Positions 2-63,672 of a stretch of DNA of 64,000 bases are shown here, one piece after another. The DNA comes from Agromyces ramosus (GTDB taxonomy: Bacteria > Actinomycetota > Actinomycetes > Actinomycetales > Microbacteriaceae). The stretch covers positions 534,685-598,684 of the forward strand of contig NZ_SGWY01000002.1 in assembly GCF_004216665.1 (NCBI RefSeq). The letters run 5' to 3'. A program made the translations under genes and the position numbers. The notes under the pieces are model-generated. The model had not been told where the DNA came from. It did no database searches and saw nothing but the letters and a program-made list of their open reading frames with translations. Position 1 is the first letter of the stretch; each line of letters begins with the position of its first letter.

Positions 2-829
2 CTCCCGATGCGGGTCGGGTTCGGCGTCTATCCGCAGCACGTCGACCGCGCCATCGCAGAGGGGCTGCGCACCGGTGACGTCGTGCCGGATACCGGAGGC
101 CTCGTCACGGTCGGCGGTGCCAAGGTCATCACCGACGGGTCGCTGAACACCCGCACCGCGTGGTGCTTCGACCCCTACCCGGGCCTCGAGGGCGGCGAGC
201 ATCCCTACGGGCTGGCCACCGTGACCTACGAGGAGCTCGTGCCGCTCATGCAACGCGCGCACTCCGGCGGTCTGGCACCGGCGGTGCACGCCATCGGCGA
301 TCACGCCAACGCGAGTGTGCTCGACGCGTTCGAGGCGGTCGGATGCTCCGGCTCCGTCGAGCACGCCCAGCTCCTGCGCCACGAGGACGTGGCCCGCTTC
401 GCCCGTCTCGGCATCGTGGCGAGCGTGCAGCCCGAACACGCGATGGATGATCGCGACATCGCGGATCGCTACTGGGCCGGACGCACCGACCGTGCCTTCA
501 TGCTCGCGGAGTTGCACACCGCCGGGGTCGAGCTCGCGCTCGGCTCCGATGCGCCCGTCGCCCCGCTCGACCCGTGGGTGGCGATCGCCGCGGCCGTCGG
601 CCGGACGCGCGACGGACGCGAGCCCTGGCATCCCGAGCAGGCGATCGACGTGCGCGCGGCGCTCGCCGCCTCGACGGGCGGAGCCGGTCCCGAGGTCCGG
701 GTCGGACGGCGAGCGGACCTCGCCGTCGTCGAGCGCGACCCGTACGCGGCATCCGTCGAGGAGCTGCGCACGATGCCCGTGGCGGCCACGCTCATCGCCG
801 GACGAATGACGCACGACGCGCTCCGTTGA
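2..829 (+). CDS. Amidohydrolase family protein (YtcJ-like), 5' end outside window
   Basis: This is the C-terminal part of a metal-dependent amidohydrolase. The frame is open from base 2 and the gene begins before the window, so the Met at position 8 is probably internal. Visible motifs of the amidohydrolase-3/YtcJ group are HAIGDHAN, EHAQLL and GSDAPVAPLDPW. In the family these supply metal-binding histidines and the catalytic Asp near the C-terminus. The substrate cannot be read; family members hydrolyse C-N bonds in small molecules or formylated compounds. The protein looks intact to its stop codon. It is followed by a 111-bp gap before the multicopper oxidase and no operon link is evident. 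Confidence 0.85.
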   Translation, partial: LPMRVGFGVYPQHVDRAIAEGLRTGDVVPDTGGLVTVGGAKVITDGSLNTRTAWCFDPYPGLEGGEHPYGLATVTYEELVPLMQRAHSGGLAPAVHAIGDHANASVLDAFEAVGCSGSVEHAQLLRHEDVARFARLGIVASVQPEHAMDDRDIADRYWAGRTDRAFMLAELHTAGVELALGSDAPVAPLDPWVAIAAAVGRTRDGREPWHPEQAIDVRAALAASTGGAGPEVRVGRRADLAVVERDPYAASVEELRTMPVAATLIAGRMTHDALR

Positions 830-940
830 CCCGACTGCCGCGGCACCCCGTCGGGCGGGAGGGAGTCGGGGGATAACCCCCGCGCCGATCCGGGCGCACG
901 CCGGCTGGGGCGGGAGGATCCCGCTCGCGAGGCTGGAACC

Positions 941-2485
941 ATGCCAACGACACGCCAGCTCCGCACCCCGATCCGCCGCCCGCGCGCCGCGCAGACCGCC
1001 CTCTCGGCGGTGGCGGCCGGCGCCCTCGTCGCCGTCGCGTTCGCCGGGTGCGGCCTCGGCGGGCCGGCGCCCGTCTCCACGGTCGGCGAGGTCGACTTCG
1101 ACACGCCGCTGGCGATCCCACCGCTCGCCGACTCGACCGTCGACGCCGCCGGCACCCGGGTCTTCGCGCTCGACGCGCGGGCGGGCATCACGGAGTTCGC
1201 ACCGGGCGTGACCAGCGACACGTGGGGCTTCAACGGCTCGTACCTCGGCCCGACGCTGGTCGCCGATCGCGGCGAGCGCGTGCGGGTCGACGTCACGAAC
1301 TCGCTCGACGAGCCGACGACCGTGCACTGGCACGGCATGCACCTCCCGGCCGAGATGGACGGCGGGCCCCACCAGATGGTGGAGCCGGATGCCACGTGGT
1401 CGCCCGAGTGGGACATCGACCAGCAGGCCGCCACCCTCTGGTACCACCCGCATCCGCACGGCGAGACCGAGGCGCACGTCACCCGCGGCCTCGCGGGCAT
1501 GTTCCTTGTGCACGACCCGGAGGAGCGTGCCCTCGGCCTGCCGTCGCAGTACGGCGTCGACGACGTGCCGGTGATCGTGCAGGACACGGGCTTCTCCGCC
1601 GATGGGCGTCGCGAGGCGCCGGCGCGGGGCTATGCGGGCGGGCTCGGCGACGAGCTCCTCGTGAACGGCACCCGGGGACCGTACCTCGAGGCGCACGACG
1701 AGCTGCTCCGGCTGCGACTCCTGAACGCGTCGACCGCGCGCACCTACGGCTTCACGTGGTCGGACGATCGCCCGATCGAGCTCATCGCGACCGACGGGGG
1801 CCTCCTCGAGGCATCCGTCGAGCTGGATCGCGTCGTGCTGTCGCCGGGCGAGCGAGCCGAGGTGCTCGTGCGCCTGACGCCGGGCGAGCGGGTCGTGCTG
1901 CGATCGGAGATGAGCGCCGAGGCCGCGGGCATGGTCGGCCCGGTCGCGGCGATGAACGGGAACACCGACGCGTTCGACGTGCTCGAGGTGCGCGCCACCG
2001 ACGAGCTCGAGGCCGCCGCGCCCGTGCCGGAGCGGCTCGCGACCATCACGCCGTACGACGCGGGCGAGGTGGCGACCACCCGCACGTTCCGCCTCGACGA
2101 CAGCTTCGAGATCAACGGCGAGGCCATGGACATGGGCCGCATCGACGAGACCGTGACGGTCGACACGCTCGAACGCTGGCTCGTCGAGAACGACACGGAG
2201 GTGCCCCACAGCTTCCACGTGCACGACGTGCAGTTCCGCGTCGCCTCGATCGACGGCGCCCCGCCGCCGCCCGAACTCGTGGGCTGGAAGGACACCATCC
2301 ACGCCGAACCGCAGCGGGAGTACGAGCTCCTCATGCGCTTCGAGGACTACGCGGATCCCGACACCCCGTACATGTACCACTGCCACCTGCTGTGGCACGA
2401 GGACCAGGGCATGATGGGCCAGTTCGCCGTCGTCGAACCGGGCCAGTCTGCAACGATGACAGGAGGAACCGACCATGAGCACTGA
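941..2485 (+). CDS. Multicopper oxidase, exported (probable lipoprotein)
   Basis: A 514-residue three-domain multicopper oxidase that oxidises a substrate (cuprous ion, phenol or similar) at a type 1 copper and reduces oxygen at a trinuclear cluster. All four copper motifs are present: HWHGMH (His129, 131, 134), WYHPHPHG (His169, 171, 173), HSFHVHD, and HCHLLWHEDQGMM near the C-terminus with the type 1 Cys and Met. The N-terminus has paired arginines (IRRPRA), a hydrophobic stretch and AFAGC at Cys37, suggesting Tat export and lipid attachment; Phe at -3 of the lipobox is atypical. The start codon is preceded by GAGGCT six bases upstream. The last 11 bp overlap the histidine kinase gene, so the two are translationally coupled. 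A role in copper tolerance is inferred only. Confidence 0.93.
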   Translation: MPTTRQLRTPIRRPRAAQTALSAVAAGALVAVAFAGCGLGGPAPVSTVGEVDFDTPLAIPPLADSTVDAAGTRVFALDARAGITEFAPGVTSDTWGFNGSYLGPTLVADRGERVRVDVTNSLDEPTTVHWHGMHLPAEMDGGPHQMVEPDATWSPEWDIDQQAATLWYHPHPHGETEAHVTRGLAGMFLVHDPEERALGLPSQYGVDDVPVIVQDTGFSADGRREAPARGYAGGLGDELLVNGTRGPYLEAHDELLRLRLLNASTARTYGFTWSDDRPIELIATDGGLLEASVELDRVVLSPGERAEVLVRLTPGERVVLRSEMSAEAAGMVGPVAAMNGNTDAFDVLEVRATDELEAAAPVPERLATITPYDAGEVATTRTFRLDDSFEINGEAMDMGRIDETVTVDTLERWLVENDTEVPHSFHVHDVQFRVASIDGAPPPPELVGWKDTIHAEPQREYELLMRFEDYADPDTPYMYHCHLLWHEDQGMMGQFAVVEPGQSATMTGGTDHEH

Positions 2486-3956
2486 CACCGTGCCCACCGA
2501 TCGACCGGATGACGCCACCGCGATCCTCCGGCCAGAGCTGCCAGGGAATGCGAGCTCCGCGAACATGACCACCACGACGACGGATGCCGCGCCGCTGCGC
2601 CGCGGGTACGGCGCCCTCTGGGCGAAGGTCCCGCGCGAGTTCGGCTTCCTCATCCTCACCATGCCGATCGCCATCATCGGCCTGGTCGTGCTCTCGACCG
2701 TGTTCTTCACCGGCCTCGGCCTGGTCACGATCTTCGTGGGCATCTTCCTCATGGTCGCGTCGTTCTACATCGCGCGCGGATTCGGCACGCTCGAGCTCAT
2801 CCGCCTGCGGTGGGCCGGGCGCCCCGAGATCCGCCGACCCGCCTGGGCCCGCGACGGCCGCGAGCAGGGCTTCTGGCGGTCGGCGTTCGCGCCGTTCATC
2901 GACGGCCACTACTGGCTGTACCTGCTGCACACGCTCGTCATCAACCCCATCGTCAGCATCGTCACGTGGAGCATCACCGTCGCGTGGACCTCGGTCGCGC
3001 TGGCCGGCACGACCGGCTGGATCTGGCAGCCGTTCATCCCCACCGGCGACCGCACGTTCTGGCTGAACGAATGGCTCGTCGACCGCTTCCTGCCCGGCAA
3101 CGAGCTCACGTACGACCCGGTGGTCGGCGAGCGGATCCTCGAGGTCATCCTCGGGCTGGTGTTCCTCGCCACCCTGCCGTTCGTGTTCCGCGGGCTCACC
3201 CTCCTGCACGACGTGGTCGCCCGGGGCGTGCTCGGCGCCTGGCGCTCGGAGGCGCTCGAGGTCGAGGTCGCCCAGCTCGCCGCGTCGCGCGGTGCCGCCG
3301 TACAGGCGGAGGACGCCTCGCTCCGGCGCCTCGAGCGCGACATCCACGACGGCCCGCAGCAGCGCCTGGTCCGCCTGCAGATGGACCTCGCGACGATCGA
3401 GCGCCGGCTGGAGCAGGACCCCGGCTCGGCGAAGGCACTCGTCGGCGAGGCTCGTGAGCAGGCCCGCGAGGCGCTCGACGAGCTGCGTGCGCTGTCGCGT
3501 GGATTCGCACCGCCGATCCTGCAGGATCGCGGGCTCGCGGCCGGCCTCGAGTCGCTCGCGTCTCGCAGTCCCGTGCCGGTGATCGTCGAGGTCGATCTCG
3601 CGGACGGCCTGCTGCCCGCGCCGATCGAGCGCAACGCGTACTTCATCGCCGCAGAGCTCCTCACGAACGCGGCGAAGCACGCCGAGGCGACCGCCATCCG
3701 GCTCCGCGTCGGAACGCGCGACGAGGGCCCGGCCGGCCACTGGGTCGACGTGTGGGTCACCGACAACGGTCACGGCGGCGCTGCGCCGACGCCCGGGCAC
3801 GGGCTGGCCGGGCTCGACGAGCGCGTTCGGGGACTTCGGGGGATGCTCGTGATCGACAGCCCCCCGGGCGGGCCGACCACGATCGGCGCGCACGTCCCGT
3901 ACGTGCCGCTCGGCGCATCCGGAACCGCGGCCGGCACGGTGCCGGGCGTGGTCTGA
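2475..3956 (+). CDS. Sensor histidine kinase (NarL-system type)
   Basis: A 493-residue membrane histidine kinase. Residues about 55-100 and 150-240 hold hydrophobic segments of a 'putative sensor' type domain with no large extracellular loop. The dimerisation region carries LRRLERDIHDGPQQRL with phospho-acceptor His291, typical of HisKA_3 kinases. The ATPase domain follows, with an N-box near AAELLTNAAKHAEAT and glycine motifs VTDNGHGG and GHGLAGLDER. The start codon lies inside the 3' end of the oxidase gene, so the kinase and the oxidase share a transcript. The cognate regulator is almost certainly the LuxR-type gene just downstream. The signal is unknown; the coupling suggests redox, copper or envelope stress. 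Confidence 0.93.
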   Translation: MSTDTVPTDRPDDATAILRPELPGNASSANMTTTTTDAAPLRRGYGALWAKVPREFGFLILTMPIAIIGLVVLSTVFFTGLGLVTIFVGIFLMVASFYIARGFGTLELIRLRWAGRPEIRRPAWARDGREQGFWRSAFAPFIDGHYWLYLLHTLVINPIVSIVTWSITVAWTSVALAGTTGWIWQPFIPTGDRTFWLNEWLVDRFLPGNELTYDPVVGERILEVILGLVFLATLPFVFRGLTLLHDVVARGVLGAWRSEALEVEVAQLAASRGAAVQAEDASLRRLERDIHDGPQQRLVRLQMDLATIERRLEQDPGSAKALVGEAREQAREALDELRALSRGFAPPILQDRGLAAGLESLASRSPVPVIVEVDLADGLLPAPIERNAYFIAAELLTNAAKHAEATAIRLRVGTRDEGPAGHWVDVWVTDNGHGGAAPTPGHGLAGLDERVRGLRGMLVIDSPPGGPTTIGAHVPYVPLGASGTAAGTVPGVV

Positions 3957-4052: not shown

Positions 4053-4715
4053 ATGACGGATGCCGCCCGCCGCCCCCTGCGCATCGTGCTCGCCGAGGAC
4101 TCCGTGCTGCTGCGGGAGGGCCTCGTCCGGCTGTTCGACGAGGCCGGGTTCGAGACCGTCGGGTCCTACGGCGACGCCGAGGGCCTCCTCGCCGAGATCG
4201 AGCAGACCGCGCCCGACCTCGCCGTGCTCGACGTGCGGATGCCGCCCACGTTCCGCGACGAGGGCGTGCGGGCCGCGATCGAGCTGCGCCGACGCCGTCC
4301 GAAGCTCGGGGTGCTGCTGCTCAGCCAGTACGTCGAGGGCACCTACGCGCACGAACTCCTCTCGTCGGGCGAGGGCGGCATGGGCTACCTGCTGAAGGAC
4401 CGCGTCGCCTCGCTCGACGAGCTCGAGGACGCGGTGGAGCGCGTGAGCGAGGGCGGCACGGTGCTCGACCCCCAAGTCGTGCGCGAGCTGCTCTCCCGGC
4501 GCAGCGACCCGCTCGAGTCCCTCACGCCGCGGGAGCGCGAGGTCATGGCGCTCATGGCGGAGGGGCGCACGAACGCCGGCATCGCCAAGCAGCTCTTCAT
4601 CGGCGTCGGTGCCGTCGAGAAGAACGTGACGTCGATCTTCCAGAAGCTCGGACTCGAGGACTCGGGCACCGACCACCGGCGCGTGCTCGCCGTGCTCACC
4701 TGGCTGCAGCGCTGA
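4053..4715 (+). CDS. Response regulator, NarL/LuxR family
   Basis: A 220-residue two-component regulator. The receiver domain begins LRIVLAEDSVLLREGL with the acidic pocket, and the phospho-acceptor is Asp60 in DLAVLDVRMPP. The C-terminal LuxR helix-turn-helix is LTPREREVMALMAEGRTNAG followed by AIAKQLF and VEKNVTSIFQKLGL. I chose the ATG at 4053 rather than an in-frame GTG at 4044, because the GTG sits in a good -10 hexamer. It probably pairs with the kinase encoded upstream, although a strong terminator and its own promoter lie between them. Its targets are unknown; the oxidase gene is an obvious candidate. Confidence 0.92.
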   Translation: MTDAARRPLRIVLAEDSVLLREGLVRLFDEAGFETVGSYGDAEGLLAEIEQTAPDLAVLDVRMPPTFRDEGVRAAIELRRRRPKLGVLLLSQYVEGTYAHELLSSGEGGMGYLLKDRVASLDELEDAVERVSEGGTVLDPQVVRELLSRRSDPLESLTPREREVMALMAEGRTNAGIAKQLFIGVGAVEKNVTSIFQKLGLEDSGTDHRRVLAVLTWLQR

Positions 4716-6056: not shown

Positions 6057-6198
6057 CGACGGGGTCGTCCGGATGCCGCGGTGCTCGTCGGCCCTGGTGG
6101 TCGTGGGCACCGCCGACGCGTCGACCATGAAGACCCGCACGGGTACCGGATGGCGGCGCTCTTCACGTGGGCGAAGACGGCCGGGGCAGGACCACTCG

Positions 6199-6768: not shown

Positions 6769-9700
6769 TCACCGCAGCGCGGCGATCGTGCGCGCGACTC
6801 CCCGGGCCAGGCGGAGCTGTCGTTCGTAGGTCGCTGCCAGGACGACCAGCAGCACACCCGCGATCCCCAGCCACAACCACCACCACACCGCCTCGTAGAG
6901 CTGCGTGATCCACGGCCACAGCTGCACGATGGCATGCGCCAGTAGGACGCCGCCGCCGAGCAGCAACGGGGCCTGCAGGCGCCGGACTGCCCCGATCACC
7001 ACGACCGCCACGGCCACCACGCCGAGCGCCACGTTGCGCCAGAGCTCGGGATCGAGGAAGTCCGCCACGAACGCGGGCAGCAGCAGCACCGCGAGCCCCG
7101 GACCGAGTTCGCGCCAGCTGCCGAGCTCGGCCTCGCGGCGCATCCGTACGGCGCCCGCGCCGATGAGGGCCGCCGCGATCGATGCCGTCACGATGTCGAA
7201 CGGGTCGACCCGCAAGGCCGCGAGGGCCGTGACACCGCCGATGACGAGCACACCGAGCGTCGTCCATCGGATCACCGGTCCCGTGAAGGGACGTCGTCGG
7301 GTCACCGTCGAGGCGATGTGCGCGGCGGCGAGCAGTGGGAACAGCGCGGCGGCGCGAGCGAGCGAGTCGATGCCGGCGAGGATCGCGAGCATCGTCGGCA
7401 CCGACGCCGCGACGACGGATGACGCGAGCAGCGCCTCGGCGATCCACGCCGGCTGCGACCCCGAACGCGTCCAGGTCACCGCGATGACCACGCCGGCCGC
7501 GAGCGCCAGCAGTGGCCAGAACTCGACGGGCAGCACGCTCGCCTCGCGGACCGCCACGGCCGAGCCCCGCACCAGCGCGGCGCCGGTGAGCGCAGTCCAG
7601 CCCGTCACGACGCCGAGGGTGCGGATCGGCACGCCTCGGGCCGTCTCGGGGAGGAACGCGGCGGCGATCGCCACCACGGCGCCCGCGGCGACGAGCACGA
7701 GCGTGCGGAGCTCCGACTCGGCACTCGATGCGATGCTCGGCAGCACGAGCACCGCGGCCGCGGAGGCGAACAGGCCGGTGCGGCCGGGGGAACGGGTCGA
7801 CGGCGCCGTTCGACGCCAGGTGATCATGCCTCCGGCCGTCAGGAGCGCGAGCGCCAACGGCACCGTGTAGGCCTCGACATCGTCGACGCCCTCGCCCGAG
7901 AGCCACGCCCACGCGGCTCCGACCGCGATCGGGAGGCTGAGCCACGAGAGGTGGCGGCTGGGCGAGTCGCCGGCGACGGGGTCGCCGTGGAGCGAGGCGA
8001 TGAGCACGGGCACCGGCGTGAGCAGGAGCAGGAGGAGCCACGCCTCGTCGCCGGCGAACGGCGCCGAGGCGAGCGCGATCGTGCCGGCGAGGCCGACCGA
8101 CAGACTCCACGCGAGCCGTGGGATGCTGGCGTCACGCGGCACGGCGACGTGGCCGGCCGCCGCCGCGAGGAGGACTCCGGCTGCGGTGCCGACGACGAAG
8201 GCGGGGGCATCCGGGATCGCGTCGAAGGCGGCGCCGAGTGCGAGCGCGACGAGGACGGGACCGGCGGCGGCGAGGGCGCTGCGCACCAGCGGCGACGCGG
8301 AGGGGCGGATGGCCGCGACCACGACGACGGCGCCGAGGGCGGCCGGAAGCCATCCGAGCGGTGCGTCGCCGAACGCGGTCGCCAGCGCACCCGCGGCCAC
8401 GCCGCCGAGCAGCGGCATCGCCAGGCTCGTTCGGTCGAGCGGGGGGACGCGCGGAACGAGGAGCGCGGCCGCGAGCAGCACCGCGGCGACCGTGCCCAGC
8501 CACATCCATGGCGACTGCCAGGGGTCGACCGGCGGAATGCCCGCCGCTTCGAGCCACGACGGGATCGAGAACGCGACGGCGCCGCCGAGCGCCGCGACCG
8601 TGGCGAGGTGGGCCGCGCCGATCCCGCGCGCAGCGCCGGCCGGCCACACCCGCCGGGCCAGCAGGCGCCCGGCGACGATCAGGGCGAGGAGCGCCGCGAC
8701 CGTCCACGGCCAGACGGGAGCGCTCGAGTACGCGGTGCTCCAGCCGATCCCGCCGGCCGAGATCCCCCCGACCGCGAAGACCGGCAGCAGGCCCGGGACG
8801 GCCGCGCGACCGGTCATGGCGGCCGCCGCGAGGCCGATCGCCGAGAGGAGCACGAGCGCTGCTGCGGCGAGCCACACCGTGGGTGCGATGCACGCCGCGA
8901 CCACGGCGCCTGCGGCGGCGAACGCGACCGGGATCGTCGAGAGGCGCCGGAGGCGTCCGAAGATCGCGGCCACGGCGGCGCTGCCCGCGGCCAGGATCAG
9001 CGGGACGAGCACCGCACCGAGCTCGACGTCGTCGACCGGCGAGGACACCTGCTCGGTCGGGCCGTGCGCCCATGGTTCGAGGCTCGACACCGCCCGGATG
9101 CCGATCGCCTGGAGCCCGGCCAAGCCGCCGGCGACCGCCGTGGCGGCCGCCACCGCTGCGGCGGCGGCGAACCCGGCGAGCAGCTCGCGACGGGCACGGA
9201 GGGCCCGCGCAGCTCCGGCGAGGAGGCACGCGGCGACGACCGCTCCCGCCGGTGCGATCCACAGCGCGTCGGGGCGGTCGAGCTCCTGCAGCGCGCCCAC
9301 CGCCGGGGCCAGCGCGACGCTCGCGCCGAGCGCCGGTGCCGCGATCCAGCTCCAGGTGGTGGTCGCGCCGGGCTCGCGGAGGGCGAGTACGACGACCGCC
9401 AGCAACCATGCGCCGGCGGCTGCGAGCAACGCCCACGACGCGCCCCAGGCGACGTCGGGGAGCGCCCACGGCGCATCGATCGTCGCGGCGGCGCCGCCGA
9501 CGAAACCGCCGGCGAGGAGGATGCCGCGCTCGGGTGAGGCACGCAGGGCGCCGGCGACGAGGGTGCCGACCACCGCGGCCGCGAGGCCGCCCAGCCAGAT
9601 GCCGGCGGCGGTCTCGGGGTCGACGGAGTACGCCAGCAGGAAGGCCGAGACCGGGGCGAGCCCGGCGGCCGCGAAGCCGGGCACGCGGATGCCGCTCACG

Positions 9701-10551
9701 GCTCGCGTGCCGGCGAGCAGGGCCGCGACGAGCGCGAGCGCCACCCCCGCGTAGGCCGAGGCGCCGAGCCGCTCGCTGCCGAACAGCTCGTTGGCCCGCA
9801 CGATCCACACGTCGAGCAGCAGCAGCACGACGGCGACGACGGCCACGCCCTCGGCGGTCCCGGGCAGTCGACGTGCGCGCAGCAGCCAGGCGAGTCCGAG
9901 CACGAGCACGCTCGCGCCTGCGATGATCACCGAGCGCACCTCGAGGCTCGCCACCAGGTAGGCGACGAAGAGGAACACGATCGCCGTGACCGAGATGAGC
10001 ACCACGCCGAGCGTGAGCAGGAGGACCTGCACGCCCGATCGGCCGCTCCGGCGCTCGCCGGCGGCGACGGAGCCGGCGGGCGCGACCGGGGGAGCCGGGG
10101 GAGCCGCGACGGCGGCCGCGGCCGCGGCATCCGTCGACTCGTGCTGCCGGGTCGGGACGGCGACCGTGGACCATTCGTCTCGCGTCGGCCCGGTGACGGA
10201 TGCCGCCTGCGCGCCGGCATCGGCATGGGTCGCCGTGGCCGGCGGCACGACCGCCACCTCGATGGGCACGCTCGTGGCGGGGATCTCGACCCACGCCTCG
10301 CGAGCCGCCTGCGCCGCGCGCATGCGCCCGATGAGCTCCTGACGCGCGAGCTCGCCCTGGTAGACCGCCGTGGAGCGCTGGAGCAGCTCGGCCGCCTCGG
10401 GGACGTCGAGATCGAGCCCGCACACACCGCATCGCGTCGCCGACAGCGTGCTGAAGCAGGCCGGGCAGCGCGTGGTGTCGACGAATTCGGCGGGATCGGC
10501 GGGCCAGCGGCGCAGCGCCGGCCCCCCGGCTGGGCTCGGGCGGTCGGTCAT
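6769..10551 (-). CDS. Very large polytopic membrane protein with N-terminal zinc ribbon (SCO7613-like)
   Basis: A 1260-residue protein. Residues 29-44 hold a zinc-ribbon CPAC...CGVC (Cys29, 32, 41, 44). A charged helix and an Ala/Pro/Thr-rich linker follow to about residue 170. The rest is almost continuous hydrophobic segments, by eye more than 30. Such zinc-ribbon plus many-TM proteins are known in actinobacteria as SCO7613 C-terminal domain proteins; their function is unknown. I chose the ATG at 10551 because the 56 residues upstream are not protein-like and overlap the next promoter region. No clear Shine-Dalgarno is present. It is monocistronic and convergent with the NTF2-like gene. Confidence 0.85.
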   Translation of the reverse strand: MTDRPSPAGGPALRRWPADPAEFVDTTRCPACFSTLSATRCGVCGLDLDVPEAAELLQRSTAVYQGELARQELIGRMRAAQAAREAWVEIPATSVPIEVAVVPPATATHADAGAQAASVTGPTRDEWSTVAVPTRQHESTDAAAAAAVAAPPAPPVAPAGSVAAGERRSGRSGVQVLLLTLGVVLISVTAIVFLFVAYLVASLEVRSVIIAGASVLVLGLAWLLRARRLPGTAEGVAVVAVVLLLLDVWIVRANELFGSERLGASAYAGVALALVAALLAGTRAVSGIRVPGFAAAGLAPVSAFLLAYSVDPETAAGIWLGGLAAAVVGTLVAGALRASPERGILLAGGFVGGAAATIDAPWALPDVAWGASWALLAAAGAWLLAVVVLALREPGATTTWSWIAAPALGASVALAPAVGALQELDRPDALWIAPAGAVVAACLLAGAARALRARRELLAGFAAAAAVAAATAVAGGLAGLQAIGIRAVSSLEPWAHGPTEQVSSPVDDVELGAVLVPLILAAGSAAVAAIFGRLRRLSTIPVAFAAAGAVVAACIAPTVWLAAAALVLLSAIGLAAAAMTGRAAVPGLLPVFAVGGISAGGIGWSTAYSSAPVWPWTVAALLALIVAGRLLARRVWPAGAARGIGAAHLATVAALGGAVAFSIPSWLEAAGIPPVDPWQSPWMWLGTVAAVLLAAALLVPRVPPLDRTSLAMPLLGGVAAGALATAFGDAPLGWLPAALGAVVVVAAIRPSASPLVRSALAAAGPVLVALALGAAFDAIPDAPAFVVGTAAGVLLAAAAGHVAVPRDASIPRLAWSLSVGLAGTIALASAPFAGDEAWLLLLLLTPVPVLIASLHGDPVAGDSPSRHLSWLSLPIAVGAAWAWLSGEGVDDVEAYTVPLALALLTAGGMITWRRTAPSTRSPGRTGLFASAAAVLVLPSIASSAESELRTLVLVAAGAVVAIAAAFLPETARGVPIRTLGVVTGWTALTGAALVRGSAVAVREASVLPVEFWPLLALAAGVVIAVTWTRSGSQPAWIAEALLASSVVAASVPTMLAILAGIDSLARAAALFPLLAAAHIASTVTRRRPFTGPVIRWTTLGVLVIGGVTALAALRVDPFDIVTASIAAALIGAGAVRMRREAELGSWRELGPGLAVLLLPAFVADFLDPELWRNVALGVVAVAVVVIGAVRRLQAPLLLGGGVLLAHAIVQLWPWITQLYEAVWWWLWLGIAGVLLVVLAATYERQLRLARGVARTIAALR

Positions 10552-16103: not shown

Positions 16104-16221
16104 TGGTAGCACCGCATCCGGGCGCGCGGAACGGTGCTCGGGGCCATCCCGCCGCCGACGGCGCGGCTGGGGCATCCGGCCGGATCGATCCAGGCGGAGT
16201 GGAACGATCAGCCTGCTGGGA

Positions 16222-25280: not shown

Positions 25281-25351
25281 CCGCGCGGTCGCCGTGGCGG
25301 CATCCGTCGTCGACGCATCGAGCGGATGCCGCGGCGAACGCCGTACGGACG

Positions 25352-34555: not shown

Positions 34556-34567
34556 GCCGCATCGGCG

Positions 34568-51979: not shown

Positions 51980-52998
51980 TGGCCAACCGGCTCACCACAT
52001 TCGGCAACGACCTCTACACGGGCAAGCGCTCGTTCAACTTCGTCGGCGGCCGCAAGAAGTGGTACGCGATCGCGGGCGTGCTGATCATCCTCACGGTCCT
52101 GATCCCCGTGCTGCGCGGGATCAACTTCAGCATCGAGTTCCGCGGCGGTTCGCAGTTCCAGATCGCGGGCATCGAGAACGCCACGCCCGAGCCCGCGATC
52201 GACGCGGTGGCGTCGGTCGTGCCCGAGGCCGACTCGCACGTCACGATCGTCGGCGGCGACGGGGTGCGGGTGCAGACCGACCAACTCGAGCAGGCCGACT
52301 CGCGGGCGGTCACGACCGCCCTCGCCGAGGCGTACGGCGTCCCCGAGTCGGAGGTCACGTCGTCGTTCATCGGCCCGAGCTGGGGTGCGGATGTCACGAG
52401 GCAGGCGCTCGTCGGTCTCGTCGCGTTCCTCCTGCTCGCGGGCGTCATCATGGCGATCTACTTCCGCACCTGGAAGATGTCGCTGGCGGCGATCCTCGCG
52501 CTCATCGGCGACCTCATCGTCACGGTCGGCATCTACGCCGCGGTCGGCTTCGAGATCAGCCCCGCGGCCACGATCGGCATCCTGACGATCCTCAGCTACT
52601 CGCTCTACGACACGGTGGTGGTGTTCGACAAGATCCGCGAGAACACCGCGGAAGACGGCCAGGAGTCGCGCCGCACGTTCGCCGAGTCGGTGAACCTCGC
52701 CGTGAACCAGACCCTCGTGCGCTCCATCAACACGAGTGTCGTGGCGGCGCTGCCGGTCGCGGCGATCCTCTTCATCGGCGCCGGGGTGCTCGGGGCCGAC
52801 ACCCTGCGCGACATCTCCCTCGCACTGCTGATCGGCATCATCGTGGGAACGTGGTCGACCGTCTTCATCGCCGCGCCGCTGTACTCGCAGCTGCGCGAGG
52901 GCGAGCCGGCCATCCATCGCCACGACCAGAAGGTGCTGAAGGAGCGCGAGCGCGCGGCATCCGCGACGAGCAACGCCGAGGCGCTGCCGACCGTGTGA
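51979..52998 (+). CDS. secF: Protein translocase subunit SecF
   Basis: A 339-residue partner of SecD with six transmembrane helices. Motifs are INFSIEFRGGSQFQI after TM1 and ILSYSLYDTVVVFDKIREN in the C-terminal bundle (the conserved proton-relay Asp and Arg). ATG at 51979 shares one base with the secD stop (TGATG), so the two are coupled. Hydrophilic tail KVLKERERAASATSN. Confidence 0.97.
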   Translation: MANRLTTFGNDLYTGKRSFNFVGGRKKWYAIAGVLIILTVLIPVLRGINFSIEFRGGSQFQIAGIENATPEPAIDAVASVVPEADSHVTIVGGDGVRVQTDQLEQADSRAVTTALAEAYGVPESEVTSSFIGPSWGADVTRQALVGLVAFLLLAGVIMAIYFRTWKMSLAAILALIGDLIVTVGIYAAVGFEISPAATIGILTILSYSLYDTVVVFDKIRENTAEDGQESRRTFAESVNLAVNQTLVRSINTSVVAALPVAAILFIGAGVLGADTLRDISLALLIGIIVGTWSTVFIAAPLYSQLREGEPAIHRHDQKVLKERERAASATSNAEALPTV

Positions 52999-55322: not shown

Positions 55323-55909
55323 TCGCCATCGCGCGCTGAACGCCGCCCGGATTCCGCCAGCTCGAGCCGCCTGCGGGCCGCCGCCCGGTGCGGCATCCGG
55401 ACGGCGGCATCGAGTCGCTCGTGCAGTGCCGTCGCGAGCGCGGGCCGCTCGACCTGCAGGGCGCCGACCACGCCCACGACCACGTCGTCGTCGAGGCTCG
55501 GATCGCGAAGCAGGTCGAACGCGGTGCGCGTCGGCGAGGTGCACCGGTGGTCGCCGAACCGCACGATGTCGTCGTCGTCGATGCGGACCTCGCGGACGAG
55601 CGTTCGAGGGCGGTCGACGACGGCGATCCTGGCATCGAGCGGCACGCAGAACTGCGCGACCGTCGGGGCATCGTCGATCGCCCCGTGCACCCACGCCGCC
55701 GACATCCGCTCGATGATGAGCGAGCGGGGCGATCGCATGGACAGGACCATGGCTCGGAATGCCGGGTGGTCGGGTTCGTCGACCGGTGCCCAGGCATGGT
55801 CGATCACGAAGAGCTCGCCGTCGAGTCGCGCGGCGCAGAGCTCGGCGAGCGGAAGGTGATCGGTGCCGAGCACCGCGGGAAGCCGGGCCATGAGGTCATG
55901 CTGCGGCAT
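55301..55909 (-). CDS. Hypothetical protein, AbiEi-antitoxin-like
   Basis: A 202-residue protein. The middle has MSAAWVHGAI and the conserved CTSPTRTAFDLLRD, reminiscent of the AbiEi-type (type IV antitoxin-like) and DUF559-linked proteins common in actinobacteria. No AbiEii toxin or nuclease neighbour is present. The N-terminal winged-helix part is weakly conserved by eye. The start at 55909 is an ATG without an obvious ribosome site. Its stop codon lies inside the end of rsh (22 bp overlap, convergent). Confidence 0.65.
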   Translation of the reverse strand: MPQHDLMARLPAVLGTDHLPLAELCAARLDGELFVIDHAWAPVDEPDHPAFRAMVLSMRSPRSLIIERMSAAWVHGAIDDAPTVAQFCVPLDARIAVVDRPRTLVREVRIDDDDIVRFGDHRCTSPTRTAFDLLRDPSLDDDVVVGVVGALQVERPALATALHERLDAAVRMPHRAAARRRLELAESGRRSARDGDQPSLTR

Positions 55910-56011
55910 CCGGCCGTCTGCGCACCGCGTGACGATCGAACTGTGGAGAACGTCGGTCGTCGTCGGAGGGCGCGGTCGAGTGGGCCGCGTCGCCTCGGTG
56001 GTGTCGGCCGG

Positions 56012-57244: not shown

Positions 57245-57331
57245 GGCCTCACCCTGTCGTGGTCGGATGCCGCCCCACGGGCGGCGTTGACGGCATCAAG
57301 CCTATTGCACCGCCCGAGGGCGGGACCGTCG

Positions 57332-58210: not shown

Positions 58211-58250
58211 GCGGGTCGTCGGGGTCGGCCGGGGTGTCGGATGCCGCGGC

Positions 58251-58263: not shown

Positions 58264-59691
58264 ATGGTGGACTCCAGCCCGGGGCTGCGTTCCGGCGCGA
58301 CGCCGCTCGCCGTGCGCATGCGCCCGACGAGTCTCGACGAGGTCGCCGGCCAGCGGCACCTGCTCACCCCGGGATCGCCGCTCGTCGCACTGGCGGGCGA
58401 TCGCACGGGCGAATCGGGCTCGGTCTCGGTCATCCTCTGGGGTCCGCCCGGCACGGGCAAGACCACGCTCGCGCAGGCGATCGCCCGCTCCTCGGGCCGC
58501 AAGTTCGTCGAGCTCTCCGCCGTCACGGCCGGCGTGCGCGACGTGCGCCAGGTGATGGAGGAGGCGCGCGCCAGCCGCGACCTCTACGGACTCTCCACGG
58601 TCCTCTTCCTCGACGAGATCCACCGCTTCACGAAGGCCCAGCAGGACGCGCTGCTCCCCGGCGTCGAGAACGGGTGGGTCATCCTCGTCGCCGCCACCAC
58701 CGAGAACCCCTCGTTCTCCGTCATCTCGCCGCTGCTCTCACGGTCGCTCCTGCTCACGCTCGAGCTCCTCACCGACGACGACCTCGGCGTCCTCGTCGAC
58801 CGTGCGGTCGCCGACCCGCGCGGGCTCGCCGGAGCGGTCGACCTCGAACCCGAGGCGCGCGCCGCGATCATCCGACTCGCCTCGGGCGACGCGCGGCGGG
58901 CCCTCACGGCGCTCGAGGCGGCGTCGGTCGCCGCGTCGCAGGTCGCCGCGGCCGCCGCCGCCGGCGACGGCGAGCCCGCGGCATCCGACGCCGGAGATGC
59001 CGACGACGGCGCCGACGACGGTCGTGCAGCGGATGCCGCCGTCCCGCCCCGACCCGTCGTGACCGCCGAGGTGGTGGCCCGCGCCGTCGATCGTGCGCTG
59101 CTGCGGTACGACCGCAACGGCGACGAGCACTACGACGTCATCAGCGCCTTCATCAAGTCGGTGCGCGGGAGCGACGTCGACGCCGCGCTGCACTACCTGG
59201 CGCGCATGATCGAGGCGGGTGAGGATCCGCGCTTCATCGCCCGGCGCATCATCGTGCTCGCGTCCGAGGACATCGGCATGGCCGACCCGACGGCGCTCGG
59301 CGTTGCCGTGGCCGCGGCCGACGCCGTGCAGTACATCGGCATGCCAGAGGGGCGCATCCCACTGGCCCAGGCGGTCGTGCACCTCGCGACCGCCCCGAAG
59401 TCGAACGCCGCGTACCTGGGCATCGACCGTGCGATCGCCGACGTCCGCGAGGGCCGGGCCGGTCGGGTGCCGAAGCACCTGCGCGATGCCCACTACCCCG
59501 GCGCGAAGCGGCTCGGCCACGGCAAGGGCTACAAGTACCCCCACGACGACGAGATCGGCGTGGTGCAGCAGGAGTACCTTCCCACCGAGCTTCGCGGCGC
59601 GACGTACTACCAGCCCACCGAGCACGGCAATGAACGCGAGGTGTCGGCGAGGCTCGCGAAGCTGCGACGCATCGTGCGGGGCGGACCCTGA
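58264..59691 (+). CDS. rarA: Replication-associated recombination protein A (RarA/MgsA)
   Basis: A 475-residue AAA+ ATPase related to clamp loaders and RuvB, acting at stalled forks. Walker A is [17 protein letters not shown], Walker [18 protein letters not shown], sensor 1 [20 protein letters not shown], and the C-terminal tetramerisation domain contains [20 protein letters not shown]. About 40 residues of Ala/Asp-rich low-complexity sequence (near 58930-59050) interrupt the lid region. The ATG at 58264 is the family start, so no extension upstream is supported. Confidence 0.96.
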
Positions 59692-60581: not shown

Positions 60582-60693
60582 TTCCGTGCCTGCGGCATCT
60601 GCCTCCGCGGCATCCGTCGCCGCTAGACTGTCGAGCGCGGCGCGGCGGCCTCCGCAGGGCGCTGCTCGCGGGCGCTCGGCCATGACCGGCGCC

Positions 60694-60959: not shown

Positions 60960-61014
60960 CGCCGGCACCCCGACTCCGCCCGGTCGCACCGGGCCGCTGA
61001 ACCAGAACGGAATC

Positions 61015-63672
61015 ATGCAGACTGCAGACATCCGCCAGCGCTGGCTGGACTTCTTCGCCGCGCGCGGCCACACCGTCGTGCCCTCGGCCTCCCTCGTCTC
61101 CGACGACCCGACGCTGCTCTTCACCGTGGCCGGCATGGTGCCGTTCGTCCCGTACCTCACGGGCCTCGTGCCGCCGCCGTACCCGCGCGCCACGAGCGTG
61201 CAGAAGTGTATCCGGACGAACGACATCGAAGAGGTCGGCAAGACGCCGCGCCACGGCACGTTCTTCCAGATGAACGGCAACTTCTCCTTCGGCGACTACT
61301 TCAAGGAGGGCGCCATCAGCATGGCGTGGGAGCTGCTCACCACGCCCGAGGCCGACGGCGGGTACGGCTTCGAGCCGAAGGACCTCTGGGTGACCGTCTA
61401 CAAGGACGACGACGAGGCCATCGAGCTGTGGAAGCGGATCGCAGGGCTGCCCGAGGAGCGCATCCAGCGACTCGACAAGGACACGAACTACTGGCACACC
61501 GGCCAGCCCGGACCCGCGGGTCCGTGCTCCGAGATCTTCTTCGACCGCGGCCCCGCCTACGGCATCGACGGGGGACCGGCGACGGACGACGACCGCTACG
61601 TCGAGATCTGGAACCTCGTCTTCATGCAGTACCTCATCGACGACGTGAAGTCCAAGACCGACTTCCGCATCGTGCGGGAACTGCCGAAGAAGAACATCGA
61701 CACCGGCATGGGCCTCGAGCGCGTCGCGTTCATCAAGCAGGGCGTCGAGAACATGTACGAGATCGACCAGGTGCGCCCGGTGCTCGACCGCGCCGCGGAG
61801 ATCTCGGGCCGGCGGTACGGCGCGGTGCACGACGACGACGTGCGCATGCGCGTGATCGCCGACCACGTCCGCTCCTCGCTCATGCTGATGAGCGACGGCG
61901 TGACCCCGTCGAACGAGGGTCGCGGGTACATCCTCCGTCGGCTCCTGCGTCGCACCATCCGCGCGATGCGGCTGCTCGGCGTCGAGGGGCCGACCTTCCG
62001 CGAGCTGTTCGCCGCCTCGCGCGATGCCATGAAGGCGGCGTATCCCGAGGTCGCGCGCGACTACGCCCACATCGAGCAGCTCGCCCTCGGCGAGGAGGAG
62101 ACGTTCCTGCGCACGCTCGCGGCGGGCACCTCGATCCTCGACGGCGCCGTCGCGACGACCAAGGCCGCCGGACAGGCGGAGCTCGCCGGCGACACGGCGT
62201 TCCTCCTGCACGACACCTACGGCTTCCCGATCGAGCTGACCCTCGAGATGGCCGACGAGGCGGGCCTCGCGGTCGATCGCGGCGCGTTCGACGAGCTGAT
62301 GACCGCCCAGCGTACGCGCGCGAAGGCGGACGCGAAGTCGAAGAAGAAGGTGCTCGCCGACCTGTCCGTGTACGGCGACTTCCGCGCCAAGGGCGAGACG
62401 ATCTTCACCGGGTACACCGACCTCACGACCGAGTCGACCGTGCTCGGGCTCATCGTCGACGGCCGGCCGGTGCCGGTCGCCACCGCGGGGCAGACCGCTG
62501 AGGTCATCCTCGCGGAGACCTCCCTGTACGCGGAATCCGGCGGCCAGGCGCCCGACCAGGGCCGCATCGTGGGCAACGGGTTCGAGCTGGAGGTCATCGA
62601 CGTCCAGAAGCCCGTGAAGGGCCTGATCAGCCACACCGCCAAGGTGGTGTCCGGCGAGGTCGGCGTGGGCGTGCCCGCGACGACGCTCGTGGACGAGGAC
62701 TACCGGCGCGGCGCGACGCAGGCGCACTCCGGCACGCACCTCGTGCACGCGGCGCTCCGCCAGGTGCTCGGGCCGAACGCGCACCAGTCCGGGTCGTTCA
62801 ACAAGGCCGGGTACCTGCGCCTCGACTACGGGTGGAACTCCGCGCTGTCGCCCGAGACCCGCAGCGAGATCGAGGAGATCTCGAACAACGCCATCCGCGA
62901 CAACCTGCAGGTCGTCACCCGCGAGATGCCGCTCGACGAGGCGAAGGCCCTCGGCGCGATGGCGCTCTTCGGCGAGAAGTACGGCGACGTCGTGCGCGTC
63001 GTCGACATCGGCGGCCCGTGGTCGCGCGAACTCTGCGCCGGCACCCACGTCTCGACGAGCGCCGAGGTCGGCATGATCAACATCGTCGGCGAGTCGTCGG
63101 TCGGCGCCTCCAACCGGCGCGTCGAGTCGCTCGTCGGCATGGACGCCTTCCGCCGGTTCGCGGCCGAGCGGGCGCTCGTCTCCGAGCTGAGCACGAGCCT
63201 GAAGACCCGTCCCGAGCAGCTCGTCGACCGCGTCGGCGAGCTCGTGACCAGCCTGAAGTCGGCGGAGAAGCGGATCGCCCAGTTCGAGGCGCGGGCCCTC
63301 GCCGATCGCGTTCCGGCGCTCGCGGCGAACGCGACGCGCGTCGGCGACGTGCTCCTCGTCGCCGAGGCCGTCGGCTCGCTGGGTTCGGGCGATGAGCTGC
63401 GATCGCTCGCGACCGCCGTGCGCGGGAAGCTCGGCGACGCGGCATCCGTGGTGGCGCTCGCAGCCGAGGTCGGCGGCAAGCCGATCGCGATCGTCGCGAC
63501 GTCGCCCGCGGCCCGCGACGCGGGCGCGAATGCCGGCGCACTCGCGAAGACGATGGCGTCCGTGCTCGGAGGGGGCGGAGGCGGCAAGCCCGACCTCGCG
63601 CAGGGCGGTGGCAGCGACACGTCGGCGATCCCCGCGGCCCTCGACGCGGTGCGCCGCGAGCTCCACCGGTAG
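61015..63672 (+). CDS. alaS: Alanyl-tRNA synthetase
   Basis: An 885-residue class II synthetase. Motif 1-3 elements include RATSVQKCIRTNDIEEVGKT and GNFSFGDYFKEGAISMAWEL. The editing domain contains the zinc ligands of HSGTHLVHAALRQ and CAGTHVSTSAE. The C-terminal oligomerisation/DHH-A1 domain ends VLGGGGGGKPDLAQGGGSDT. Length is standard. The ATG at 61015 fits the family N-terminus ADIRQRWLDFFAARGHTVVP. ruvX starts 5 bp after its stop. Confidence 0.98.
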   Translation: MQTADIRQRWLDFFAARGHTVVPSASLVSDDPTLLFTVAGMVPFVPYLTGLVPPPYPRATSVQKCIRTNDIEEVGKTPRHGTFFQMNGNFSFGDYFKEGAISMAWELLTTPEADGGYGFEPKDLWVTVYKDDDEAIELWKRIAGLPEERIQRLDKDTNYWHTGQPGPAGPCSEIFFDRGPAYGIDGGPATDDDRYVEIWNLVFMQYLIDDVKSKTDFRIVRELPKKNIDTGMGLERVAFIKQGVENMYEIDQVRPVLDRAAEISGRRYGAVHDDDVRMRVIADHVRSSLMLMSDGVTPSNEGRGYILRRLLRRTIRAMRLLGVEGPTFRELFAASRDAMKAAYPEVARDYAHIEQLALGEEETFLRTLAAGTSILDGAVATTKAAGQAELAGDTAFLLHDTYGFPIELTLEMADEAGLAVDRGAFDELMTAQRTRAKADAKSKKKVLADLSVYGDFRAKGETIFTGYTDLTTESTVLGLIVDGRPVPVATAGQTAEVILAETSLYAESGGQAPDQGRIVGNGFELEVIDVQKPVKGLISHTAKVVSGEVGVGVPATTLVDEDYRRGATQAHSGTHLVHAALRQVLGPNAHQSGSFNKAGYLRLDYGWNSALSPETRSEIEEISNNAIRDNLQVVTREMPLDEAKALGAMALFGEKYGDVVRVVDIGGPWSRELCAGTHVSTSAEVGMINIVGESSVGASNRRVESLVGMDAFRRFAAERALVSELSTSLKTRPEQLVDRVGELVTSLKSAEKRIAQFEARALADRVPALAANATRVGDVLLVAEAVGSLGSGDELRSLATAVRGKLGDAASVVALAAEVGGKPIAIVATSPAARDAGANAGALAKTMASVLGGGGGGKPDLAQGGGSDTSAIPAALDAVRRELHR

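What the first reader, a model, noticed from the sequence alone, without database searches (positions are those of the whole stretch)
748..63448. Strongly over-represented 8-mer CGGATGCC / GGCATCCG
Reading by eye I found 45 copies of CGGATGCC or its complement, for example at 748, 1386, 2581, 4057, 6070, 10126, 10197, 12132, 12821, 14901, 19428, 19503, 25299, 25323, 30227, 30891, 42086, 44110, 47860, 48574, 48592, 58980, 59030 and 63441. A simple composition model (about 70% GC) predicts about five in 64 kb on both strands. Copies occur in genes in several frames, in intergenic gaps and in the tandem hairpins near 34.6 kb. In genes it often appears as GCG-GCA-TCC-G or GCG-GAT-GCC, using the locally rare codons GCA, TCC and GAT where GCG, TCG and GAC dominate. 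It could be a chromosome-organising, recombination, uptake or modification motif.
Basis: partly seen in the sequence, partly recalled or inferred. Interest (0 to 1): 0.72.

Follow-up and report, generated by a model that had tools for sequence, protein, structure and literature searches.

The report
Candidate DNA-uptake tag of Microbacteriaceae
A ten-letter DNA word occurs about 2,800 times or more in this soil bacterium (Agromyces) and, in lineage-specific spellings, is abundant in most sampled genomes of its Gram-positive family; it is likely a self-recognition tag for taking up DNA, a device so far reported in only two unrelated Gram-negative families.

Summary
The unit is CGGATGCCNC, about 0.85 per kb, equal on both strands, mostly inside genes. 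Codon use does not explain it: 302 copies in CDS against 26 (synonymous shuffle) and 44-68 (codon-pair nulls). The host is an Agromyces (Microbacteriaceae). In the order, 32 of 34 family genomes have 184 or more exact 10-mers; the maximum in 362 other genomes is 152. The family shows dialects around a CGGATGC core, with CGGATCC in one Microbacterium and two Clavibacter loci. The word forms inverted pairs just after stop codons, is rarer in prophages and has no strand bias. This is the anatomy of Neisseriaceae DNA uptake sequences, and comEA, comEC and Tad-type loci are present. Uptake itself is untested and no receptor is known. Rivals: a HIP1-like word tied to a conserved methyltransferase, or a Chi-like site. 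Probability of uptake function about 0.5; if true, a third, Gram-positive family with uptake tags.

The parts
746..755 (-). CGGATGCCNC site
   Evidence: inside called gene 8-829+
1386..1395 (+). CGGATGCCNC site
   Evidence: in gene 941-2485+
1808..1817 (-). CGGATGCCNC site
   Evidence: in gene 941-2485+
2581..2590 (+). CGGATGCCNC site
   Evidence: in gene 2565-3956+
4057..4066 (+). CGGATGCCNC site
   Evidence: in gene 4044-4715+
4236..4245 (+). CGGATGCCNC site
   Evidence: in gene 4044-4715+
6070..6079 (+). CGGATGCCNC site
   Evidence: between called genes
8204..8213 (-). CGGATGCCNC site
   Evidence: in gene 6769-10425-
9686..9695 (+). CGGATGCCNC site
   Evidence: in gene 6769-10425-
10124..10133 (-). 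CGGATGCCNC site
   Evidence: in gene 6769-10425-, inverted pair with 10197
10197..10206 (+). CGGATGCCNC site
   Evidence: in gene 6769-10425-
12132..12141 (+). CGGATGCCNC site
   Evidence: in gene 10904-12364+ (looks like trigger factor, by eye)
12819..12828 (-). CGGATGCCNC site
   Evidence: in gene 12432-12914+
14901..14910 (+). CGGATGCCNC site
   Evidence: in gene 14456-15733+ (looks like clpX, by eye)
15128..15137 (-). CGGATGCCNC site
   Evidence: in gene 14456-15733+
16169..16178 (-). CGGATGCCNC site
   Evidence: between called genes
19428..19437 (+). CGGATGCCNC site
   Evidence: between called genes
19503..19512 (+). CGGATGCCNC site
   Evidence: in gene 19493-20242+
19754..19763 (-). CGGATGCCNC site
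   Evidence: in gene 19493-20242+
20370..20379 (-). CGGATGCCNC site
   Evidence: between called genes
25297..25332 (.). inverted pair of CGGATGCCNC sites (25297-25306 -, 25323-25332 +), hairpin between convergent genes, 16 bp after the gene end at 25280
   Evidence: fold z = -2.89; 2 of 200 shuffles fold as well
30227..30236 (+). CGGATGCCNC site
   Evidence: in gene 30012-30602-
30889..30898 (-). CGGATGCCNC site
   Evidence: in gene 30694-31908+
32732..32741 (+). CGGATGCCNC site
   Evidence: in gene 32457-33356-
34565..34619 (.). three CGGATGCCNC sites (34565-34574 -, 34585-34594 +, 34610-34619 +), predicted hairpin 9 bp after the gene end at 34555
   Evidence: fold -42.5 kcal/mol but z only -0.95; 36 of 200 shuffles fold as well
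37087..37096 (+). CGGATGCCNC site
   Evidence: between called genes
39159..39168 (-). CGGATGCCNC site
   Evidence: in gene 37805-39874-
39565..39574 (+). CGGATGCCNC site
   Evidence: in gene 37805-39874-
42084..42093 (-). CGGATGCCNC site
   Evidence: in gene 40818-42755+
42797..42806 (+). CGGATGCCNC site
   Evidence: in gene 42757-43320+
44110..44119 (+). CGGATGCCNC site
   Evidence: in gene 43422-44339+
45533..45542 (+). CGGATGCCNC site
   Evidence: in gene 45169-45906+
46554..46563 (-). CGGATGCCNC site
   Evidence: between called genes
47204..47213 (-). CGGATGCCNC site
   Evidence: in gene 46676-47431+
47860..47869 (+). CGGATGCCNC site
   Evidence: in gene 47442-48050+ (looks like ruvC, by eye)
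48572..48581 (-). CGGATGCCNC site
   Evidence: in gene 48047-48667+ (looks like ruvA, by eye)
48590..48599 (-). CGGATGCCNC site
   Evidence: in gene 48047-48667+
50649..50658 (+). CGGATGCCNC site
   Evidence: in gene 50246-51979+ (looks like secD, by eye)
52954..52963 (-). CGGATGCCNC site
   Evidence: in gene 51979-52998+ (looks like secF, by eye)
55390..55399 (-). CGGATGCCNC site
   Evidence: in gene 55301-55909-
55903..55912 (-). CGGATGCCNC site
   Evidence: across a called gene end at 55909
57264..57273 (+). CGGATGCCNC site
   Evidence: between called genes
58238..58247 (+). CGGATGCCNC site
   Evidence: just upstream of called gene 58264-59691+
58978..58987 (-). CGGATGCCNC site
   Evidence: in gene 58264-59691+, inverted pair with 59030
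59030..59039 (+). CGGATGCCNC site
   Evidence: in gene 58264-59691+
60607..60616 (-). CGGATGCCNC site
   Evidence: between called genes
63439..63448 (-). CGGATGCCNC site
   Evidence: in gene 61015-63672+ (looks like alaS, by eye)

Best explanation
CGGATGCCNC is a genome-wide DNA word with clade-specific dialects in Microbacteriaceae that likely works as a DNA uptake sequence: a predicted surface receptor on the competence (Tad/Flp-type) pilus would prefer DNA carrying the local dialect, so that the cell takes up DNA of its own kind. Shown: the word, its consensus, its dialects, its abundance in this family and not in 362 other sampled genomes of the order, its effect on codon choice and peptides, its lack of strand bias, its inverted pairs after stop codons, its lower density in prophages, and the presence of comEA, comEC and Tad-type ATPase loci. 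Inferred: that the cells are competent, that a receptor reads the word, that imported tagged DNA recombines via ComEA/ComEC, and that biased uptake plus recombination spread and maintain thousands of copies and let the dialect drift between clades.
For: Density 392 copies in 464 kb with near-Poisson spacing (5-kb bins: mean 4.24, variance 4.83), the same order as the 943-5918 copies per genome of Neisseriaceae DUS. Sharp consensus: 21-fold for CGGATGCCGC, 10-17-fold for the other bases at position 9, 0-3.9-fold for all other single substitutions except one rare word at 5.6-fold (4 against 0.7). Dialects with a shared core: CGGATGCCGC in the host, CGGATGCCTC among the top 10-mers of three low-count Agromyces, GCGGATGCGT, AGCGGATGCC, GCGGATGC[T/G]G, AACGGATGCC in other genomes, CGGATCC in one Microbacterium and two Clavibacter loci; the CTC/CGC balance is clade-structured on the AlaS tree, judged by eye. 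Strands equal: 198/194, heterogeneity p = 0.72 over 21 stretches. Inverted pairs within 40 bp 18 against 6.7 (0 of 500 randomisations), direct pairs 11 against 6.9 (57 of 500); 8 of 11 intergenic inverted pairs begin 0-19 bp from the stop of a gene reading into them. Five overlapping palindromic pairs CGGATGCCGCGGCATCCG in 464 kb; overlapping dyad pairs are also reported for S. muelleri DUS. Prophage stretches 17 in 140 kb against 129 in 260 kb of other chromosome. Peptides paid for the word: [APST]DAA 139 against 59 and 51 for its permutations, 97 of the 139 encoded by the word. comEA-comEC pair and three Tad-type ATPase loci; Tad genes are required for transformation in the actinobacterium Micrococcus luteus (abstract).
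Against: No uptake, binding or transformation data; two searches for uptake sequences in Actinobacteria or Microbacteriaceae held no paper and a third listed one review that I did not read. ComEC is present in 17 of 17 genomes tested, including two from families where the word is not abundant, so com genes do not explain the distribution. No receptor identified; the host has no PilB-type ATPase hit. A raw link between reduced Tad ATPase sets and low word counts (p = 1.8e-4, 7 against 30 genomes) is not borne out in most sister comparisons on the AlaS tree: G013 1081 / G029 1068, G019 1435 / G032 1341, G022 550 / G017 665; only G014 1439 / G011 1962 goes the expected way, and G014 is an 840-contig assembly. 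The restriction is not absolute: G267, of another family, has 152 copies against 52 for the reversed word and a weak GGATGCCG excess. After composition is allowed for, prophage depletion is milder (CGGATGC observed/expected 1.61 against 2.61). Prophage depletion would also fit other chromosomal signals.
Confidence: 0.5

Rival explanations
1. A HIP1-like word: the predicted target (or remnant) of a conserved orphan N6-adenine methyltransferase, accumulated through biased repair or a methylation-dependent signal.
For: At least one PF01555 methyltransferase in 12 of 12 motif-bearing family genomes, a single one in 11; 76-95% identity among the 120 listed of 8000 scored relatives, including Cryobacterium, Leifsonia, Glaciibacter and Rathayibacter; no restriction gene recognised by eye in the 5 kb around it. 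HIP1 in cyanobacteria is tied to orphan methyltransferases (start of abstract, passages).
Against: The word has nine fixed bases, is not palindromic and has a free position; the related solved enzymes RsrI and CcrM recognise short palindromes (recalled). The enzyme stays 82% identical in the record whose contig length equals that of G270, a CTC-dialect genome. m5C methylases (PF00145) are in only 4 of 12. Whether the enzyme also occurs in families without the word was not tested.
Confidence: 0.17
2. A Chi-like recombination site for the RecBCD/AdnAB-type end-processing enzyme.
For: Chi words are also short, frequent and species-specific (asymmetry recalled). The word is conserved at aligned sites more than control words (79 of 277, 0.285, against 0.165).
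Against: No strand bias beyond chance; about 2,800 copies or more is above the ~1,000 of E. coli Chi (recalled); hairpin pairs after stop codons and palindromic overlaps are not a Chi feature (recalled).
Confidence: 0.12
3. A binding site for a nucleoid-organising or segregation protein (bulk chromosome architecture).
For: Genome-wide, near-Poisson distribution, rarer in prophages.
Against: Known segregation-type signals are few or strand-polar (recalled); this word is neither. Twofold higher density outside genes and terminator-like pairs are unexplained.
Confidence: 0.1
4. By-product of codon-pair or dipeptide preference.
For: 260 of 308 coding copies fall in two frames giving Ala-rich peptides.
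Against: 302 copies in CDS against 26 (synonymous shuffle) and 44-68 (codon-pair nulls); density twice as high outside genes; peptides themselves are in excess because of the word.
Confidence: 0.01

Closest known systems
DNA uptake sequences (DUS) of Neisseriaceae, read by the minor pilin ComP
   Same: 10-12 nt non-palindromic word in 943-5918 copies; dialects around a fixed core that follow the phylogeny; inside genes and between them; inverted pairs at terminators; overlapping dyad pairs in one species; under-represented in the accessory genome.
   Different: Gram-positive Actinomycetota; different core (CGGATG[C] instead of CTG; the shared string ATGCCG is probably chance); no PilB-type pilus ATPase in the host, so a Tad/Flp system would have to carry the receptor; no experiment.
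Uptake signal sequences (USS) of Pasteurellaceae
   Same: Short genome-wide word with two dialects used for self-DNA uptake (passages).
   Different: Unrelated sequence, organism and envelope.
HIP1 of cyanobacteria
   Same: Very frequent octamer; some lineages with a replaced word; orphan methyltransferases.
   Different: HIP1 is palindromic; this word is not.
Chi sites
   Same: Short, frequent, lineage-specific.
   Different: No strand bias here; more copies than E. coli Chi (recalled); hairpin pairs.
Flp/Tad-dependent natural transformation of Micrococcus luteus
   Same: Same phylum; Tad loci needed for transformation (abstract).
   Different: Five search terms for uptake words or specificity gave no occurrence in that paper's text.

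Membership tests
DNA uptake sequence (DUS/USS class) | 9-12 nt word, hundreds to thousands of copies, the top over-represented word | tested here: met
DNA uptake sequence (DUS/USS class) | dialects with an invariant core, distributed along the phylogeny | tested here: met
   tree fit judged by eye; the core base changes to CGGATCC in one Microbacterium and two Clavibacter loci; weak or unseen in some members (G022; G292 at 20 kb; Marisediminicola and Pseudoclavibacter loci)
DNA uptake sequence (DUS/USS class) | both orientations, no replication-strand bias | tested here: met
DNA uptake sequence (DUS/USS class) | inverted pairs at transcription terminators | tested here: met
   8 of 11 intergenic inverted pairs begin 0-19 bp from a stop codon; termination itself not shown
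DNA uptake sequence (DUS/USS class) | scarce in mobile or accessory DNA | tested here: met
   7 prophage stretches 0.12/kb against 0.50/kb in 13 other stretches; core word observed/expected 1.61 against 2.61; phage Min1 3 in 46 kb
DNA uptake sequence (DUS/USS class) | competence machinery present | tested here: met
   comEA, comEC; PF03772 and the ComEC N-terminal model over cut-off, the full-length comE and ComEC_Rec2 models below theirs; Tad-type ATPases
DNA uptake sequence (DUS/USS class) | dedicated word-binding receptor (ComP-type minor pilin) | tested here: inconclusive
   only pilus ATPases were searched; no PilB-type hit in the host
DNA uptake sequence (DUS/USS class) | word raises DNA uptake or transformation | not testable with these tools
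   needs experiment
Neisseriaceae DUS proper | CTG core and DUS-like sequence | tested here: not met
   consensus CGGATGCCNC lacks CTG
Chi site | orientation bias along the replichore (recalled) | tested here: not met
   chi2 16.8 on 21 df
HIP1 | palindromic word GCGATCGC | tested here: not met
HIP1 | conserved orphan methyltransferase whose site lies in the word | tested here: inconclusive
   enzyme present in 12 of 12; its target is unknown
FtsK guiding sequence (KOPS) | strong leading-strand polarity (recalled) | tested here: not met

The most novel reading that the evidence does not exclude
Microbacteriaceae have independently evolved DNA uptake sequences, the first in a Gram-positive phylum, with at least six dialects and even a core-base switch (CGGATGC to CGGATCC), read by a Tad/Flp-pilus-borne receptor, so that species recognition of DNA works as a language that drifts between clades.
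Probability: 0.45. Interest if true: 0.9.

Novelty: new variant of a known kind. Interest (0 to 1): 0.76.

Why it matters
[quoted passage not shown] A third, unrelated family in the Actinomycetota, with several dialects and thousands of copies, would show that self-tagging of DNA also arose behind a Gram-positive envelope and possibly with a Tad pilus. It would give a predicted handle for transforming hard-to-engineer soil actinobacteria: put the local dialect on the donor DNA. If the function turns out to be something else, a nine-base asymmetric word that occupies about 0.8% of the sampled genome and changes peptides still needs a cause.

Tried and rejected
Codon or codon-pair bias: rejected by three nulls. 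Strand-polar signals (KOPS, strongly polar Chi): no strand heterogeneity. Link between Tad ATPase loss and low copy number: significant raw, but three of four sister comparisons show little or no difference, so not used as support. PilB-type pilus as the uptake machine: present in some and absent in other word-rich genomes, including the host. Even spacing: no, near-Poisson. m5C methylase as universal partner: 4 of 12. A thin single-mismatch cloud as a difference from DUS: dropped, because raw counts (273 for 289 perfect copies, 182 expected by chance) lie within the range given by Frye et al. (21% extra in K. oralis to 1.45 per perfect copy). Outgroup families: two sampled at 80 kb; f18 genome G267 shows a weak GGATGCCG excess and f7 genome G361 a different word. 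G292 gave only 20 kb with unrelated top words although its whole genome has 613 copies. Orders other than the host's were not searched for the word, apart from two Streptomyces loci and one Collinsella locus. Literature: ten searches used; the motif-string search matched 965 papers, 20 were listed, none was read, and the listed titles look incidental; the methylome search listed 8 papers, none read.

Rows dropped before counts: in the codon nulls and peptide counts genes with a caller score under 25 were left out (414 kept); the gene caller is my own and names of window genes are by eye. In one search one locus of another lineage (L118) slipped into the Agromyces list; one search repeats the pooled test with the 16 Agromyces loci only. 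G014 (840 contigs) was kept in the Tad comparison although its gene set may be broken by assembly. Tad types were assigned by me from match ranges and scores.


Full report
Observation. By excess over an order-3 Markov model it ranks first among 8-mers, and CGGATGCCGC first among 10-mers (42 against 1.5). In the whole 3.84-Mb genome CGGATGCCGC is found 1198 + 1189 times and the same letters read backwards 28 + 19 times.

The unit. In 464 kb of this genome (the window plus 20 stretches) a substitution scan gives CGGATGCCNC: at position 9 the four bases are 10-21 times enriched, while the 27 other single substitutions are 0-3.9 times expectation except one rare word at 5.6 (4 against 0.7); in sum 273 observed against 182 expected. 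An R before and a G after are favoured. There are 392 copies in 464 kb. CGGATGCCTC alone occurs 401 times in the genome against 4 for its reverse, so CGC plus CTC make 2788 copies. 50 of the 59 window copies have the full form.

Not codon use. 308 copies lie fully in called genes and 84 do not; density is 0.75 per kb in genes and 1.54 per kb elsewhere. Two frames hold 260 of the 308: xCG-GAT-GCC-NCx and GNG-GCA-TCC-Gxx. In 414 CDS there are 302 copies; shuffling synonymous codons within genes leaves 26, a codon-pair chain trained on all codons 68, one trained without the word 44. The word also buys its own peptides: [APST]DAA occurs 139 times against 59 and 51 for [APST]ADA and [APST]AAD, and 97 of the 139 are the exact 10-mer; AAS[AGVDE] occurs 140 times against 67 and 65 for ASA and SAA, and 87 are the exact 10-mer.

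Distribution. ComEC relatives name the organism: the nearest are Agromyces (up to 73% identity), then other Microbacteriaceae. The 10-mer is at 279-2784 copies in 36 of 36 other Agromyces genomes, and at 6-77 in 23 of 23 genomes of other families. In a sample of 396 genomes of the order, 32 of 34 family members have 184 or more copies (the others 58 and 114) and none of 362 non-members has more than 152. The highest non-member, G267, has 152 against 52 for the reversed word and a weak GGATGCCG excess in 80 kb, so the boundary is not perfectly sharp. Other orders were not searched.

Dialects. Most genomes with few exact copies spell the word differently. In 80-100 kb each: three low-count Agromyces (G270, G032, G013) have CGGATGCCTC among their top three 10-mers (42 copies against 0.9 in G270); G281 has GCGGATGCGT; G312 AACGGATGCC; G159 AGCGGATGCC; G237 GCGGATGC followed by TG or GG; G117 and G331 the host's form. 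In 40-80 kb, G131 and G199 have the host's form, G073 GGATGCCG, G248 GCGGATGCCG; G292, with 20 kb, showed none among its top words. G103, without CGGATGC excess (28 against 36), has CGGATCC at 124 against 36, and two Clavibacter loci show a CGGATCC excess too (44 against 12.5 and 26 against 10.4). G022 is weak (CGGATGC 63 against 33). Among ComEC loci, 14 of 16 Agromyces and 24 of 26 Microbacterium loci have CGGATGC above 1.5 times expectation; the Streptomyces, Collinsella, Pseudoclavibacter, Clavibacter, Zimmermannella, Marisediminicola and two unnamed actinobacterial MAG loci do not. On an AlaS tree of 30 Agromyces the CTC/CGC balance looks clade-structured, by eye.

Conservation. At 277 aligned host sites in 16 Agromyces loci the nine fixed bases are all kept in 79 (0.285), against 0.165 for control words of the same AT count; at kept sites the N position varies.

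Arrangement. Strands are equal (198/194) with no stretch-wise bias (chi2 16.8, 21 df, p = 0.72). By my own estimate, not computed in a call, a consistent 60:40 bias over 392 sites would probably have shown. Inverted pairs within 40 bp are in excess (18 against 6.7; 0 of 500 randomisations), direct pairs hardly (11 against 6.9; 57 of 500). Of 11 intergenic inverted pairs 8 begin 0-19 bp from the stop of a gene reading into them. Two of three folded examples are more stable than shuffles (z -5.96 and -2.89); the 34.6-kb cluster is not (z -0.95). Five perfect palindromes CGGATGCCGCGGCATCCG (spacing 8) occur in the 464 kb. Intergenic density is 1.86 per kb between tandem, 1.06 between divergent and 1.16 between convergent genes, so convergent gaps are not preferred.

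Mobile DNA. Seven Agromyces stretches around phage portal genes (7 of 60 genomes) hold 17 copies in 140 kb; 13 other stretches of the same genomes hold 129 in 260 kb. Allowing for composition, CGGATGC is at 1.61 times expectation in the former and 2.61 in the latter. The stretches may include some chromosome beyond the prophage ends. Phage Min1 of Microbacterium has 3 in 46 kb and CGGATGC 22 against 18.

Machinery. The host has an adjacent comEA-comEC pair. PF03772 and the NCBI ComEC N-terminal model are over their cut-offs; the full-length comE and ComEC_Rec2 models match below theirs. Three ATPase loci match T2SSE at 135-224 bits, none at the 450+ bits of PilB-type hits in other genomes; by eye from the translations they look like Tad clusters, one with an Flp-like pilin. 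ComEC is in 17 of 17 genomes, outgroups included. In Micrococcus luteus Tad genes are needed for transformation (abstract). I tested whether Tad loss goes with low word counts: 7 of 37 Agromyces with fewer than two of the two lower-scoring Tad-type ATPases have 550-1439 copies (CGC + CTC) against 546-3185 in the 30 others (p = 1.8e-4). On the AlaS tree three of four sister pairs show little difference (1081/1068, 1435/1341, 550/665) and one does (G014 1439 / G011 1962; its next neighbour G010 has 1476). So this is mostly clade structure and not counted as support.

Methyltransferase rival. A PF01555 enzyme is present in each of 12 word-bearing genomes, as a single match in 11. The host's copy lies beside what looks like an lplA gene, with no restriction gene recognised in 5 kb, is 76-95% identical to the 120 relatives listed, and is distantly similar to RsrI and CcrM methylases. 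Its site is unknown.

Comparison with the known. Frye et al. 2013 (abstract and two sections read) describe eight DUS dialects sharing CTG, 943-5918 copies per genome, inverted pairs at terminators and overlapping dyad pairs. DUS are under-represented in the accessory genome (passage), and their atypical distribution has been used to find mobile elements (abstract). A 2025 paper calls Neisseriaceae and Pasteurellaceae the only families with such discrimination (passage). Searches in the held library for uptake sequences with Actinobacteria or Microbacteriaceae found no paper; a third listed one review, not read. The library lacks most subscription journals. The Agromyces word has the sequence-level features of a DUS that I could test, but not the DUS sequence, and none of the functional features has been tested.

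Verdict. A real, unexplained family-wide word with dialects, for which I found no description. The most likely role is a DNA uptake tag (about 0.5), ahead of a HIP1-like methyltransferase word (0.17), a Chi-like site (0.12) and a nucleoid site (0.1).

Noticed in passing
L293:2173-3060 (host contig C1 near 1.2877 Mb): Conserved N6/N4 DNA methyltransferase with no restriction partner recognised nearby; PF01555 found in 12 of 12 family genomes tested; target unknown.
   Followed up: partly
window, whole: Other over-represented words: GAGCGCCT/AGGCGCTC (36 against 7.0) and CGGACTC/GAGTCCG (33 against 9.0); GAGTCCGA also in G270 (19 against 2.1).
   Followed up: no
window; G032 and G013 stretches: The cyanobacterial HIP1 octamer GCGATCGC is mildly in excess (25 in the window, z 7.8) and CGATCGCG is high in G032 and G013.
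   Followed up: no
host stretches L040-L059 and window: GCACAACCGCAC 20 copies against 0.1 expected in 464 kb, perhaps a repeat array.
   Followed up: no
L222-L225 (G361, another family of the order): A different over-represented word, CGCCGAGGCC (22 against 3.1 in 80 kb); other actinobacterial families may have their own words.
   Followed up: no
L102, L111: Public records titled Planococcus and Acidobacteria carry a Microbacteriaceae-like ComEC and the CGGATGC excess; probably mislabelled.
   Followed up: no
L256-L259 (G248): C-homopolymer runs: CCCCCCCC 76 against 5.6 in 80 kb.
   Followed up: no
window 748-63448: The Neisseria DUS ATGCCGTCTGAA and this word share the string ATGCCG; the essential CTG core is absent, so probably chance.
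   Followed up: no
G003:C1:1372996-1373817, G022:C111:28004-28447, G025:C11:446851-447246, G030:C1:2226363-2226728: Broken or truncated-looking Tad-type ATPase genes in four Agromyces genomes.
   Followed up: partly
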